Below, in pieces: positions 16,121 through 42,809 of a DNA stretch of 64,000 bases; position 1 is the first letter of the stretch; the number at the start of each line of letters is the position of its first letter. The DNA is from Amphirosellinia nigrospora (taxonomy: Eukaryota; Ascomycota; Sordariomycetes; Xylariales; Xylariaceae): assembly GCA_004123355.1 (NCBI GenBank), contig SCHM01000004.1:2698316-2762315 (forward strand), written 5' to 3'. The notes below the pieces were generated by a model. It was not told the origin of the DNA. It saw only the letters and a program-made list of their open reading frames with translations, and made no database searches. Position numbers and translations under genes: made by a program.

Positions 16121-16872
16121 ATGCTCGGCGTTATTCCTGCACTTATACAAGATGATCCCGAATTTTCGGAATTGCCAGCGCTTGTTTTGATCCACGATGG
16201 AGGGGGCACACCATCAAGTACTACTACTTGGGCGATCTCGAGCGACACGTCTGGGGTATCAGCAATGAAAAGCTAGTCGACGACCGTGCCTGGCCGGGTG
16301 GCATCAATCAAATGGCTCAAGCATACGTCGACCTCATTCTTCGTGAGCTCCCCCGCGGACCACTGATATTTGGGGGGTGGTCCGTCGGTGGTCTCATTGC
16401 CTTGGAGATGGCCAAGATCATAGCCGGAAATACCGAGACTTCGGTTCTTGGTGTCGTCATGATGGACACGTATTACCCGTCCGCCGACGATGCCGGGCGC
16501 GATAAAGACACGCCCCCTATAGAATGGGGCGAGGCGACGACGGAAGAGTCGAAGAAAATAACTCTGAAGAGCCTGGAAAACTCGGCCAAGTTCTCTCAAC
16601 AATGGGGCCGAGACGCCCGGAATGCGTTGGCTAAAACCGAATTGCCCCCAGTCGTTCTGCTCCGCGCAAGCGAGAGTCACAGTATTTCCGACGCGAGATT
16701 ACGCAGCGGGGATAACATTCTAGGATGGGAAACTTACCGGGTTAACTTTTTCACGCGCGTCTTGGACGTACCGGGAAACCACTATACCCTCTTTACGGAC
16801 GAGAATGTGGATGGCTTGACTGAAGGGCTTGCACAAGCATGTGAAATATTCGAGGACGCGGAGGGTGATTGA
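16121..16872 (+). CDS. free-standing thioesterase (alpha/beta hydrolase, NRPS type II-like)
   Basis: About 250 residues, the usual size of a discrete NRPS/PKS thioesterase. The entry reads LPALVLIHDGGGT, the oxyanion region. The nucleophile elbow is GGWSVGG (Ser), followed by VVMMDTYYP (candidate Asp) and PGNHYTLF (catalytic His), all in the expected order. The frame breaks once near 16218, where one T is missing from a Tyr-codon run. The ATG at 16121 begins a short lead into the domain. It stands just upstream of the C*-A-T NRPS on the same strand, with CGGTAT sites in its promoter. It could hydrolyse mis-loaded carriers or take part in product release. Which of these it does cannot be read from sequence. 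Confidence 0.85.
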
Positions 16873-16923
16873 GTATTATTACGCATGATCATGCTTTAGC
16901 TGGAAGCTGTAAAAGCCCATCTA

Positions 16924-16956
16924 TTCATATTCTGTTCATATTCTGTTCATATTCTG
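16924..16956. repeat. 11-bp tandem repeat, three perfect copies
   Basis: TTCATATTCTG repeated three times without mismatch, 50 nt after the thioesterase stop codon. It could affect 3'-end formation or be neutral. Confidence 0.9.
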
Positions 16957-17181
16957 TTTGTATAGATCATTAGGTTTTGAAAATACGGACCTACGCATTA
17001 CTGCGTTAAAGTCGGACTTGATGTAATTATTATCGCCTCCACCAGACAGAGGAACCCTTTGAGTAATCCCTATTGTATAAGGAATATTACAGCTATATGT
17101 GCGGCTAACATTCAAGCCCCAATGCCTGACCGACGAACGCTTTTTTCCGTAAAAGACTATATACATTCCGTGGCGTCTGAA

Positions 17182-39369: not shown

Positions 39370-39522
39370 CAGTATGAAACACTTTCGGTTCCTGTTGCCG
39401 GAAGTGGCTGTACGCACTATCACATAGGTACCGATATAGAAATGATTGATGCTAGCACAATTACCCTTTCTAGAGTAGCTAAATTGGAAACTCGGTTTAT
39501 TTTCAAAGTAATCATTTATAAA

Positions 39523-41246
39523 TTAAATGCAAAATGACACAATTGTGGCCAGTAAAGATACCAAAGACCCAGCAGCAAGACTTCTTGTCATACCATTAGA
39601 TAGCGAGTTGCTGTCCTTTTCGGATGCCATAGAAAAGATACGAGTGCATATAACACCTGCTATGATCTGAGGAATAGTCATAGATAGGCTATTGATCCCC
39701 AAGAATAGCCCTGCCCGGCTCGATCTTCTCTGATCCCCATGATCGCTTCGAATAAATTCATCTGTTAACATAGTGTATGGAATTATCTGCGCCACAGCCC
39801 AACAAAACCCGATCATTGCGGCTAACGCGAGCATAAGAGCAGTGGAGGTTGTTAGCAAGATGCCGCCAACGAACACCGAGTAGAGCGCTAGAGACAACCT
39901 CCATATTCTTAACGGTTCAATTCTAGGAGTGTCGAAGGTCATGTTGCCCGAATTGGTGTTCCTCGTGTTGCGGCGGACTAGTAACGGGAGAATCAGACTA
40001 GTTGTCAACTGCACTACTGATTGTAAAACAGCGCCAGCGGCCCCAACCGGTCAGCCGTATTCCCCTTTCGATGACCTTTGCCGTTATTAGTCTAAAGGCT
40101 AGTATGCTGTTTTAATGTGCTTTGGCTTGGATACACACACCTTTTTCTGTTATATACCTGAGAGAAAGTAAATAAGTAACAATTAATTAAATCACGAGTG
40201 GAGGAGCATACCTGCTGATGTAGAATAGATATGGAAACCATGCCAACGATGCCAAGAATTGGACTGCTAAAATTTTGGTGATCCGAGTGTTGACAGTTTC
40301 GTTCAATTGTTGAATATAAGACATATGTCTCGGGTGTTCTTCGAAGGAAAGACTTGCGAAGTGGGATAAGGGGTGGTCTTTGGTAACCCGCCACGCAATA
40401 AATGCTAGTCGCTCCAATAATGATGATAGAAGATATTAGAGCTAGCTCCTGCATGCGCAGCTCGATTGTACTCAATTGTGGCAACCCATAGGATAAGATG
40501 TAATACAATGCGCTTGTCAAGCTGATAACCCGGCTAGCCCACGTGTTGGCATCCAACTGTTGAGTGGCAGGACATTCATCTACCATATTAGAACGTGTTC
40601 CAACTTGAACAGCCTGTGCAGATGTGTACAGCATCACGACAGCAAAAATGCTGACGAATATTTTGGTACGGCAGGCTGGCGAAGTCCCCTTACAAGAATC
40701 ATCCAAGCTATCCGCAACTGTAGAAGTCCATGCTTGTGTGAGCAGCGCAAAAAGCAATCCAGTGCTGCCTAACAATACTAATGGCTCCCTTCTACCTCCC
40801 TTCTCCTTCAGTCTATCACTCAATATCCCAAAAGTTAGCTGCAAGGTAGCCCGCATAACGGGGGTATAATCCAGACGGATGCGATCACTGTAGGGCTGAT
40901 GCCAATGTCTAATAAGAAATCCTGTCGTCCTCGTCAATACTGGATAATGGCTTAGGCACTGGAACACTAACCGTGCCATCTGCGAATTGGGAGCAGTATG
41001 CCGACTGTAGACTTCAAATTGGTCAATATGCGCATGTTTAACTTTGAGCTGAAGGTTGACTGACCCTGTTAGACTGATTGTCAGAACGAAAATCTCATAA
41101 TTCGATTTTGTTGGGGGATACGATCGAAGCGCTGCATCCTCCACGAGTAATTCGTTTGAAGAGTCATCAAAGCTGGAGTCTTCTCCATTTCTCTCTTGAT
41201 CAAGGGCCCCTAATGGCAGCTGCCTTTCTCCGTGATGGTTTGCCAT
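39523..41246 (-). CDS. SUT-like MFS carrier (sucrose/alpha-glucoside transporter family)
   Basis: The first segment, YEIFVLTISLTG, is the first helix of fungal SUT-type (GPH-related) carriers. Further matches are FGILSDRLKEKGGRREP (loop 2-3), QFLASLAWFPYLFYIS (start of helix 7) and IGFCWAVAQIIPYTML (helix 10), each typical of this family. The start is the ATG at 41246 (MANHHGERQLPLG). The reading crosses several introns and one-base breaks (around 41110-40900, 40560, 40190-40020), so the exact exon borders are not settled. It stands tail-to-tail with MFS carrier 1 and divergent from the second UstYa-like gene. A sugar carrier inside an NRPS cluster is uncommon. It may be a cluster member or simply the boundary. 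Confidence 0.72.
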
Positions 41247-41721
41247 CAACACGCGCTAGCTTTCCTCATCTATGATCCAATGCGCCAAACAGGGAGCCGA
41301 TCGTCGAATGGTAAGAAATAATAAGATTTATCTTATTTCTTTCGGGGGTTCATGGCAAATAGCTTGCTCTATTGAAACCCAGCTGGGAGGCGTCAGACGG
41401 CGAAGTCACTCTTTTCATCAGTATAGACCCTAACTAAGCCCAGCAATAGGATACAGAGTATGACTAAGTCTGATAACCAATGAAATCGAGAAAGGAAAGC
41501 GAATGCTAGCATCCAGATAAATACCGAAGCTGATTCCGAAGCAGTACCGATTCCGGTACATATGTCAGCATGGTCCGAAGAAGCCAAAACCTAGAACCGA
41601 GAGTATAGGCTATAGCCGTAATGGTTCTAGCTCGAGGCATACCTTCGAGAATGTCCTCAGGGAAGAAGATAAGTAATAGTCGGTCTTACTAGCCAATTGG
41701 ACACCCCGACTTGACATCTGG
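41247..41721. promoter_or_regulatory. divergent promoter, SUT-like carrier / UstYa-like gene 2
   Basis: 475 bp. It contains ATACCG at 41521-41526 and, 18 nt on, a perfect inverted repeat GTACCG-ATTC-CGGTAC at 41544-41559. Confidence 0.5.
41521..41559. promoter_or_regulatory. ATACCG core plus GTACCG-N4-CGGTAC inverted repeat
   Basis: A single ATACCG followed by a 6-bp-arm perfect inverted repeat with a 4-bp spacer. CCG-N4-CGG is the geometry used by Leu3-type zinc-cluster dimers. It is the most symmetric example of the motif in the window. Confidence 0.5.
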
Positions 41722-42809
41722 ATGTACATACCCCTATCGCTTTCTTACCTTACAGCCATCTACATTGCTGCTTACGGAACCACCATATCCATCTCAGAAC
41801 TTCGCGATCTCCTTTCTACATCTACTTGGGATTGTAGTCTATTAATCTTGTACAATGGATGCAATCAAATCGGCTTTTTCACGGCTTTCGCTGAGATCGC
41901 CACAGCAATTGCGGTCAAGTCAGCGATATATGACGACGAAGGCCAAGAATGTACCGAAGATGAACAAAATCAGAGCTTTCTAAGGTCTAAAGAAGATGGC
42001 CACCTTAATACTGAGCTTCGAAACGCATCAGAGAACGCCGTTACTCCGCCGTATGCGTGTCGATATATCGCCTGGTTGCAATAGTCGTCGGTGCCGTAAT
42101 TTCGACGGCGGCTGTTTCGGCTTTCATGAGCCAGTCCTCCACGCGCAATTTCGGGAACCCATGGAGCTACAAAGACGTCTCCGAACACGCCACTCAGGTC
42201 ATCGCAGATCTAATCAAGACTTCAGAGCCCGCGAATTTCCACATGAAATCTCCATGCGGCTCGACGCCGGAGGAGGCCAAGGCTCGAGGGTGTAACTTTG
42301 ACACCATTTCCTTCTGCTGGCTTCCCGACGAGTGCTATGACCCGGACCTAGTGGCCACGTTCGAGGCGACGAGGGACTGGGAATATTATGCGGACCCTGA
42401 GGTAAGCATTGAGGACTGTTCATTTATTTTCGAGGCCTGCTCGGGGCCGTTTATCGTGATGTGTGTTTTTCGACTCCTTTTCAACCGGATGTAGTAATTG
42501 TTAACCTCCGACTTTGATAAAAAAAAGGGGAAGCAGACTATCAGCCACGAGGAACTCGTGGGAGGCCATGGTAGTAACCTCTGGGTTAGTTGGGAGTACC
42601 ACCTCCGCCACTGCATGTTCATGTGGATGAAGCTACATCGCGCCGTCCTAGCGAAGGGGGACCCGGACAGACCGCTGCTTGATAGTTACATCGCTAATCT
42701 CAATCACACCAACCATTGCGCCACGATCCTGCTAACCGATCGTGATGTCGCATTCTCTACGCTCAACACAGAAACCCTTGTCAAGTATCCAGACTGCGGA
42801 ATGCTCTAG
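41722..42809 (+). CDS. UstYa-like (DUF3328-related) membrane protein 2
   Basis: Second member of the same family in the cluster. The N-terminal part is acidic (DDEGQECTEDEQ), followed after a one-base loss near 42055 by one membrane helix (LVAIVVGAVISTAAVSAF). The luminal part has CGSTPEEAKARGC, FCWLPDECYD and WEYYADPE, then an intron at 42402-42527 (GTAAGC...AAAAAG), then HLRHC near 42600-42614 and HTNHC near 42705-42719, again two HXXHC motifs. The C-terminus ends YPDCGML. The start is uncertain: an ATG at 41722 is in frame, but the first 70 residues look unlike the family, so an unrecognised intron or later start is possible. Its pairing with protein 1 on the other side of the carriers suggests a two-protein oxidase system. 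Confidence 0.68.
42402..42527 (+). other. intron of UstYa-like gene 2
   Basis: GTAAGC donor after CCT-GAG, TTAAC branch-like site, and an AAAAAAG acceptor before GGGAAGCAG. It joins ADPE to GKQTIS in frame and spans several stop codons. Confidence 0.7.

What the first reader, a model, noticed from the sequence alone, without database searches (positions are those of the whole stretch)
16121..42809. NRPS cluster with a trimodular quinazoline-like synthetase split across two opposed genes
Seen: a C*-A-T gene (+) and a T-C-A-T-E-C-A-T-CT gene (-) on either side of a Zn2Cys6 regulator. Known: TqaA (tryptoquialanine) and FmqA (fumiquinazoline) are single proteins ordered C*-A-T-C-A-T-E-C-A-T-CT. 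Inference: this locus has the same logic with module 1 on its own protein, so a cyclic tripeptide with a D residue at position 2 is the simplest product. I know of no described cluster with this arrangement.
Basis: partly seen in the sequence, partly recalled or inferred. Interest (0 to 1): 0.9.

Follow-up and report, generated by a model that had tools for sequence, protein, structure and literature searches.

The report
Two-protein fungal peptide assembly line
A Xylaria-type fungus carries a conserved but uncharacterised peptide-making machine, split over two large enzymes with a companion thioesterase; it resembles the quinazoline-alkaloid enzymes in domain order but probably does not make a quinazoline.

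Summary
The window carries NRPS1 (+, C*-A-T), a probable regulator and NRPS2 (-, T-C-A-T-E-C-A-T-C). Relatives with open frames exist in Xylariales: 25 NRPS2 proteins (63-81% identity) and 16 NRPS1 proteins. In 9 species both come from a contig of the same length. In this assembly the frames are interrupted by about 32 single-base shifts, with no stop among aligned codons. SNF2 genes across the genome are broken likewise, so I read these as assembly errors, not decay.

"Quinazoline-like cyclic tripeptide" is not supported. All three A domains keep the Asp typical of alpha-amino-acid activation. The terminal C domain groups with elongation C domains, apart from the clade holding TqaA's cyclase, although the AU test is only p 0.086. 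A stand-alone thioesterase (16121-16869) has 18 detected relatives, 12 on contigs matching NRPS1 or NRPS2 hits.

My preferred, unproven model: NRPS2 passes its chain to NRPS1 through NRPS2's terminal C domain, NRPS1's own C* being a remnant, and the thioesterase releases a short peptide with one D residue. The reverse order remains open.

The parts
16121..16869 (+). stand-alone thioesterase (alpha/beta hydrolase, GWSVGG nucleophile, GNHYTLF histidine)
   Evidence: Pfam PF00975 E 2e-15; 204 identical of 249 aligned residues to X. curta P0242, one frame shift, no stop; 18 relatives
17504..20873 (+). NRPS1, C*-A-T
   Evidence: relatives P0001-P0016, 66-85% over the part matched; mapping
17504..18860 (+). 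NRPS1 C*, degenerate condensation-like region without the His motif
   Evidence: hhalign 97% to elongation C, C-terminal lobe; no xHxxxD pattern in P0015; complete in 1 of 16 relatives
18865..20500 (+). NRPS1 A1 domain, code begins D-V-K
   Evidence: PF00501 in two pieces; code
20565..20747 (+). NRPS1 T1 domain
   Evidence: PF00550 E 6e-10
21302..23865 (-). probable Zn2Cys6 regulator between the two NRPS genes (extent approximate)
   Evidence: cysteine motifs read by eye; no Pfam match to four pieces
25034..35541 (-). NRPS2, T0-C2-A2-T2-E-C3-A3-T3-C(terminal)
   Evidence: 25 relatives; Pfam of pieces; mapping
35200..35541 (-). T0, N-terminal carrier domain without an A domain in cis
   Evidence: P0122 residues 1-91; GGDS in 24 of 25 relatives
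33797..35089 (-). C2 condensation domain (SHMISDG)
   Evidence: PF00668
31981..33713 (-). A2 domain, code D-T-E-S-V-G-V-V-T
   Evidence: PF00501
31649..31927 (-). T2 carrier domain (interrupted by an intron)
   Evidence: PF00550
30181..31631 (-). E epimerization domain (HHLVVDMVS in most relatives)
   Evidence: PF00668; E clade
28739..30130 (-). C3 condensation domain (SHLLTDG)
   Evidence: PF00668 E 6e-32
27025..28670 (-). A3 domain, code D-A-E-S-T-H-S-V-T
   Evidence: PF00501
26629..26923 (-). T3 carrier domain
   Evidence: P0122 2729-2791 PF00550, mapped; no Pfam match in the window's own piece
25060..26521 (-). terminal C domain, GHMLIDHIS; outside the canonical CT clade in the trees
   Evidence: PF00668 in pieces; trees
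36205..36909 (+). candidate tailoring protein with two HxxHC motifs and one membrane helix (by eye)
   Evidence: motifs; no Pfam match and no PF11807 match in the window
37648..39369 (+). MFS-type transporter, fragmentary frames
   Evidence: PF07690 E 1e-4, below the family's cut-off
39523..41255 (-). transporter-like membrane protein
   Evidence: hydrophobic frames; no Pfam match to its two pieces
41680..42809 (+). second protein with two HxxHC motifs (extent approximate)
   Evidence: motifs in 42498-42809

Best explanation
A conserved, uncharacterised Xylariales assembly line of three proteins: NRPS2 (T0-C2-A2-T2-E-C3-A3-T3-C), NRPS1 (C*-A1-T1) and a stand-alone thioesterase. Shown: the domains, their conservation and, from contig lengths and locus tags, their linkage. 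Inferred: T0 is loaded in trans (by A1, A2, A3 or an enzyme not in the window). NRPS2 joins this unit to the A2 residue, epimerised to D, and to the A3 residue. The terminal C domain of NRPS2 then condenses the chain onto the A1 amino acid held on T1 of NRPS1, whose own C* is a dead remnant. The thioesterase releases a short peptide of alpha-amino acids, linear or cyclised by the TE. It is not an anthranilate-starting quinazoline synthetase.
For: NRPS1 and NRPS2 on contigs of equal length in 9 species. TE on a contig matching an NRPS1 or NRPS2 hit for 12 of its 18 relatives; 17 of the 18 are 63-81% identical (13 of them named, all Xylariales genera), the last is 36%. Carrier serine motif kept in T0 in 24 of 25 and in T1 in 14 of 16, the other two being partial; TE Ser in 17 of 18 and His in 18 of 18; terminal-C His and Asp in 25 of 25. 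C*, the one part this order leaves without a role, is the one part that is degenerate. The terminal C lies with elongation C domains (SH-aLRT 95 and 97), and holding it together with C2 of the same protein gives a tree 2.76 log units better than the free search (p-AU 0.572). Asp by alignment in A1 in 15 of 15, A2 in 23 of 23 and A3 in 25 of 25 relatives that have letters there. Precedents: Lps2 acts with separate Lps3 or Lps1 (PMC13278392, passages); inter-modular loading in SidC and SidD (PMC10192304, passages); a non-canonical terminal C that releases by an outside nucleophile (PMC9622831 section 9).
Against: The AU test does not reject placing the terminal C with canonical CT domains (p 0.086). 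Its HHxxxDG Gly is replaced in all 25 relatives; in Lps3 the same loss was read as a remnant, so the domain may be inactive. Degenerate N-terminal C domains also occur on initiation modules such as TqaA's C* (recalled). No enzyme to load T0 was found: only NRPS1 and NRPS2 answer an A profile in the window, but that profile was built from NRPS A domains and could miss distant acyl ligases. The TE was not listed for X. acuta, X. hypoxylon, X. castorea, FL0933 or PMI_506, from missing annotation or true absence.
Confidence: 0.45

Rival explanations
1. One reading: NRPS1 is the initiation module. A1 charges T1 (or T0 in trans), NRPS2 adds a D residue and a third residue, and the terminal C domain cyclises and releases a tripeptide; the TE only edits.
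For: Concatenated order matches TqaA, FmqA and OpaA apart from T0 (OpaA order seen in PMC7530659 passages; C* of TqaA recalled). Degenerate N-terminal C regions occur on fungal initiation modules (recalled). His and Asp of the terminal C are kept in 25 of 25. AU p 0.086 leaves the CT grouping possible.
Against: T0 or T1 would be superfluous although both keep their serine motif. Terminal C outside the TqaA clade. Dedicated TE. All three A domains are of alpha-amino-acid type, so no anthranilate amine is available for the quinazoline ring.
Confidence: 0.3
2. NRPS1 and NRPS2 make separate products, or NRPS1 plus TE make a modified single amino acid used as starter on T0.
For: A1 does not group with A2 and A3, and A1's code differs between Xylaria and the P0010-P0012 lineages while A2 and A3 codes hardly vary, so NRPS1 evolves under a different constraint.
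Against: Linkage of NRPS1, TE and NRPS2 over Xylariaceae and Hypoxylaceae; T0 without an A domain needs a partner.
Confidence: 0.15
3. The locus in this genome, or at least its C* region, is decaying.
For: About 32 frame shifts in TE, NRPS1 and NRPS2 relative to relatives, 10 of them in the 1.3 kb of C*. Other NRPS genes of this genome have open frames up to 1552 aa. C* is incomplete in 15 of 16 relatives' models.
Against: 0 stops among aligned codons. Root-to-tip distances of two open pieces lie inside the range of relatives (0.479 in 0.283-0.666; 0.775 in 0.617-0.996, outgroup aside). The SWR1-type gene in the same window is broken inside its SNF2 domain without room for an intron. By my reading of the tables, 11 such junctions at 10 loci (SWR1 included) among 58 SNF2 matches genome-wide and 6 further pairs among 47 C-domain matches.
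Confidence: 0.08

Closest known systems
TqaA / FmqA / OpaA quinazolinone synthetases
   Same: Three A domains, E domain behind the second, terminal C-type domain, degenerate C at one N-terminus (the last recalled for TqaA).
   Different: Two proteins; extra T0; A1 keeps Asp and is not of anthranilate type; terminal C not in the TqaA CT clade of the trees; dedicated TE.
Lps2 + Lps3 or Lps1 lysergyl peptide synthetases (ergot)
   Same: Separate fungal NRPS proteins that pass an acyl unit in trans; one partner (Lps2) carries the working C domain (its C-terminal place is recalled); a C domain with lost motif Gly read as a remnant (Lps3).
   Different: No DMATS match in the window: 8 in this genome, none within it. 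Lps3 releases with a reductase and its degenerate C lies behind A-T. E domain here.
ftChyA (chrysogine) with non-canonical terminal C
   Same: Terminal C domain outside the other fungal C clades, with its first motif His replaced.
   Different: ftChyA is A-T-C-A-T-C on one protein and releases onto free anthranilate; no TE partner was mentioned in the section read.
SidC / SidD siderophore synthetases
   Same: Carrier domains without a working cognate A domain, loaded by A domains of other modules.
   Different: Hydroxamate substrates, one NRPS protein, release by a CT domain.

Membership tests
TqaA/FmqA/OpaA quinazolinone NRPS | single protein C*-A-T-C-A-T-E-C-A-T-CT | tested here: not met
   Two proteins in 9 species; none of the 25 NRPS2 relatives carries NRPS1 (3188-3298 aa, candidates up to ~6190 aa allowed)
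TqaA/FmqA/OpaA quinazolinone NRPS | first A domain of anthranilate type, without Asp235 | tested here: not met
   Asp at that position in 15 of 15 A1 relatives with letters there and in the window's own A1. That aryl-acid A domains lack it: PMC11253843 passages. The fungal anthranilate rule itself is recalled (Ames and Walsh 2010, not held)
TqaA/FmqA/OpaA quinazolinone NRPS | E domain in module 2 (TqaA, FmqA, OpaA) | tested here: met
   HHLV(V/I)D(M/L)VS by pattern in 21 of 25 relatives; E clade
TqaA/FmqA/OpaA quinazolinone NRPS | terminal domain of the canonical fungal CT clade | tested here: inconclusive
   Outside the clade with TqaA (clade support 0.989 and 99); TqaA CT 31 versus 165 bits; AU p 0.086. 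Leans to not met
TqaA/FmqA/OpaA quinazolinone NRPS | product built on anthranilate | not testable with these tools
   needs metabolite analysis
Ergot lysergyl peptide synthetases | clustered with ergoline genes such as DMATS | tested here: not met
   8 PF11991 matches in the genome, none in C6:2698316-2762315; other ergoline genes not searched
Fungal multi-protein NRPS with trans-acting partner | two NRPS proteins encoded together, conserved linkage | tested here: met
Fungal multi-protein NRPS with trans-acting partner | chain transfer between the two proteins | not testable with these tools
   needs in vitro loading and transfer assays
UstYa/DUF3328 oxidases (36205 and ~42500 genes) | match to PF11807 | tested here: not met
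   64 matches in the genome, none in the window; only the HxxHC motifs are shared

The most novel reading that the evidence does not exclude
A fungal NRPS in which the terminal C domain of one megasynthetase serves as condensation domain for a separate C*-A-T protein and a dedicated trans thioesterase releases the product, with a starter carrier (T0) loaded by an A domain of another module or protein: a four-carrier line that looks like a split quinazoline synthetase but runs in the opposite order.
Probability: 0.35. Interest if true: 0.65.

Novelty: new variant of a known kind. Interest (0 to 1): 0.45.

Why it matters
The cluster recurs over Xylariaceae and Hypoxylaceae, a group rich in natural products, yet the searches named here found no product for it. 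Its anatomy makes three open points testable: who loads an orphan fungal carrier domain, whether a terminal fungal C domain can work in trans instead of cyclising, and whether domain order alone predicts quinazolines. It also warns that a C*-A-T-C-A-T-E-C-A-T-C reading by position can point to the wrong chemistry.

Tried and rejected
Quinazoline assignment: rejected on the kept Asp and on terminal-C placement, the latter without AU significance. The code script could only return codes that begin with Asp; the Asp claim therefore rests on the alignments. Ergopeptine assignment, considered because PMC8403587 reports an A. truncatum ergot cluster with two NRPS genes (passages): rejected for this window, since no DMATS match lies in it and the E domain does not fit; I did not test which A. 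truncatum locus is the ergot one. UstYa assignment of the two HxxHC proteins: no PF11807 match. Pseudogene reading: disfavoured on zero stops among aligned codons, ordinary branch lengths and broken SNF2 genes, but not excluded for C*. In one search, 14 of 58 SNF2 matches hold stop codons, which introns could explain; I did not sort them. Pseudoxylallemycins and other Xylaria cyclopeptides were looked at as candidate products (passages); nothing links them to this locus. A-domain substrate prediction was not attempted: no labelled fungal set was at hand. T0 and T1 are 26-29% identical in the two species compared, so T0 is no recent copy of T1.

Limits. The NRPS1 search admitted only proteins up to about 1011 aa, so longer, full-length NRPS1 relatives were missed. 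Protein hits carry no contig names, so linkage is inferred from equal contig lengths and locus tags. Of the 16 NRPS1 relatives 5, and of the 17 close TE relatives 4, come from unnamed sources. TqaA and FmqA A domains were not obtained. The structure of C* was not predicted.
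Full report
What is there. The window lies in a 48.1-Mb genome of 11 contigs whose closest named protein relatives are Xylaria species. On the + strand, 17504-20873 encodes NRPS1: a degenerate condensation-like region, one A domain and one T domain. A probable Zn2Cys6 regulator lies at 21302-23865 (-). NRPS2 lies at 35541-25034 (-). Upstream of NRPS1, on its strand, lies a stand-alone thioesterase at 16121-16869. Beyond NRPS2 lie a small protein with two HxxHC motifs, transporter-like genes and a second HxxHC protein.

Frames. No continuous frame covers either NRPS. 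Against relatives I count 25 one-base-short and 7 one-base-long shifts over TE, NRPS1 and NRPS2, and no stop among aligned codons; one shift next to the doubtful start of relative P0001 was dropped, and inserted codons were not checked for stops. Ten of the 32 fall in C*, where identity is lower and some pairs may compensate. Two open pieces, NRPS1 A-T and NRPS2 C2-A2, evolve no faster than relatives. The SWR1-type gene in the same window (name from its HSA, SNF2 and helicase domains) is shifted inside its SNF2 domain, the two Pfam pieces covering profile positions 1-150 and 147-290 on overlapping DNA. Reading the SNF2 table of the whole genome, 11 such intron-less junctions at 10 loci, SWR1 included, occur among 58 matches, and six pairs among the 47 C-domain matches lie outside the window. 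Other NRPS genes of the genome have open frames up to 1552 aa, so the errors are not everywhere. I treat the breaks as mainly assembly errors. They were described, not mended, and the analysis rests on relatives.

Relatives. One search returned 25 near full-length NRPS2 relatives, all named as Xylariales taxa (3188-3298 aa, 63-81% identity to the searched piece), plus one shorter unnamed one (P0206, 2013 aa). By motif, T0 and T2 are seen in 24 of 25, T3 in 25, C2 in 22, E in 21, C3 in 16 and the terminal C motif GHML(I/T)D(H/S)(I/V)S in 25; the patterns are narrow, so a miss is not absence. P0122 gives 4 C, 2 A and 3 T stretches by Pfam. NRPS1 relatives are P0001-P0016; 9 of these 16 come from a contig of the same length as an NRPS2 hit of the same species (X. 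acuta, X. longipes, X. hypoxylon, X. castorea, FL0933, FL1019, A. truncatum, PMI_506, X. bambusicola). C* is complete in one of the 16 (P0015), half present in P0003 and P0007, and nearly absent from the other 13 gene models, which may be true loss or poor gene models. The TE has 18 relatives in the protein collection at the search's sensitivity; 17 are 63-81% identical, the 18th is 36%, and 12 of 18 share a contig length with an NRPS1 or NRPS2 hit. In X. longipes TE and NRPS1 are locus tags g11701 and g11700.

Specificity. Codes read by motif are DVK-S-VG-GPT for A1 in most Xylaria (position 278 by eye), DTE-S-VG-VVT for A2 and DAE-S-TH-SVT for A3. A2 and A3 hardly vary over the family; A1 differs in P0010-P0012 (D-A-V). 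By alignment the first position is Asp in 15 of 15 A1, 23 of 23 A2 and 25 of 25 A3 domains that have letters there. Of 537 A domains with a letter there in the tree, 506 have Asp and 31 another residue, so the position does discriminate. Aryl-acid A domains lack this Asp (PMC11253843, passages); that fungal anthranilate A domains do so is recalled. Code-based prediction has variable success in fungi (same paper), so no substrate is named.

Terminal domain. In a tree of 563 C-type domains, TqaA's CT (from PDB 5dlk) falls in a clade of 59, of which 54 are terminal domains (support 0.989); the NRPS2 terminal domain does not. In a 61-row mixture-model tree it lies with elongation C domains (95), while CT plus TqaA is 99. 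Forcing it into the CT clade costs 27 log units but AU p is 0.086, not significant. Holding it with C2 of the same protein gives a slightly better tree than the free search. By profile it scores 373 to elongation C and 322 to CT.

Mechanism. Two orders fit the domains. With NRPS1 first, T0 or T1 has no task, and the TE duplicates release. With NRPS2 first, every conserved part has a task and only C*, the decayed domain, has none; what is missing is the enzyme that loads T0. Fungal precedents exist for trans partners (Lps2 with Lps3 or Lps1, PMC13278392 passages), for inter-modular loading (SidC, SidD, PMC10192304 passages) and for terminal C domains that use an outside nucleophile (ftChyA, PMC9622831 section 9). 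The Lps3 case also warns that a C domain with a lost motif Gly can be a remnant. I put NRPS2-first at 0.45 and NRPS1-first at 0.3. Under both, the A2 residue is D.

Verdict. The quinazoline and cyclic-tripeptide reading is not supported. It is a new variant of a known kind.

Noticed in passing
3702-9033 (-): SWR1-type SNF2 helicase gene (HSA, SNF2 and Helicase_C domains) with a frame shift inside the SNF2 domain; with the genome-wide SNF2 table it suggests that this assembly carries many single-base indels.
   Followed up: yes
G000 C1, C4, C5, C6 and C1, C5, C6, C10: Other SNF2 and NRPS genes of the genome are split by intron-less frame shifts; any pseudogene call in this genome needs checking.
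   Followed up: partly
36205-36909 and 41680-42809 (+): Two membrane-type proteins with paired HxxHC motifs as in UstYa oxidases but without a PF11807 match; possible tailoring enzymes or a separate family.
   Followed up: partly
NRPS1 relatives P0010-P0012 versus P0001-P0009: The A1 code differs between Xylaria and the P0010-P0012 lineages (Annulohypoxylon, an unnamed source, PMI_506) while A2 and A3 codes hardly vary, suggesting that one residue of the product varies by lineage.
   Followed up: no
P0092 (metagenome protein, 929 aa): Its A domain is sister to A3 (0.998) and its last domain is 34% identical to the NRPS2 terminal C with the motif GHMLIDHVS, so the odd terminal domain may be older than the Xylariales set.
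   Followed up: no
C-terminal ~20 residues of NRPS1 relatives P0001-P0007: A recurring short tail ending near (L/P)TG or LTS after the T domain, possibly a docking segment.
   Followed up: no
43478-45293 (-): BCS1-like AAA protein pieces (BCS1_N and AAA_lid_BCS1) next to the cluster.
   Followed up: no
59255-60304 (+): HNH_2 endonuclease-domain protein.
   Followed up: no
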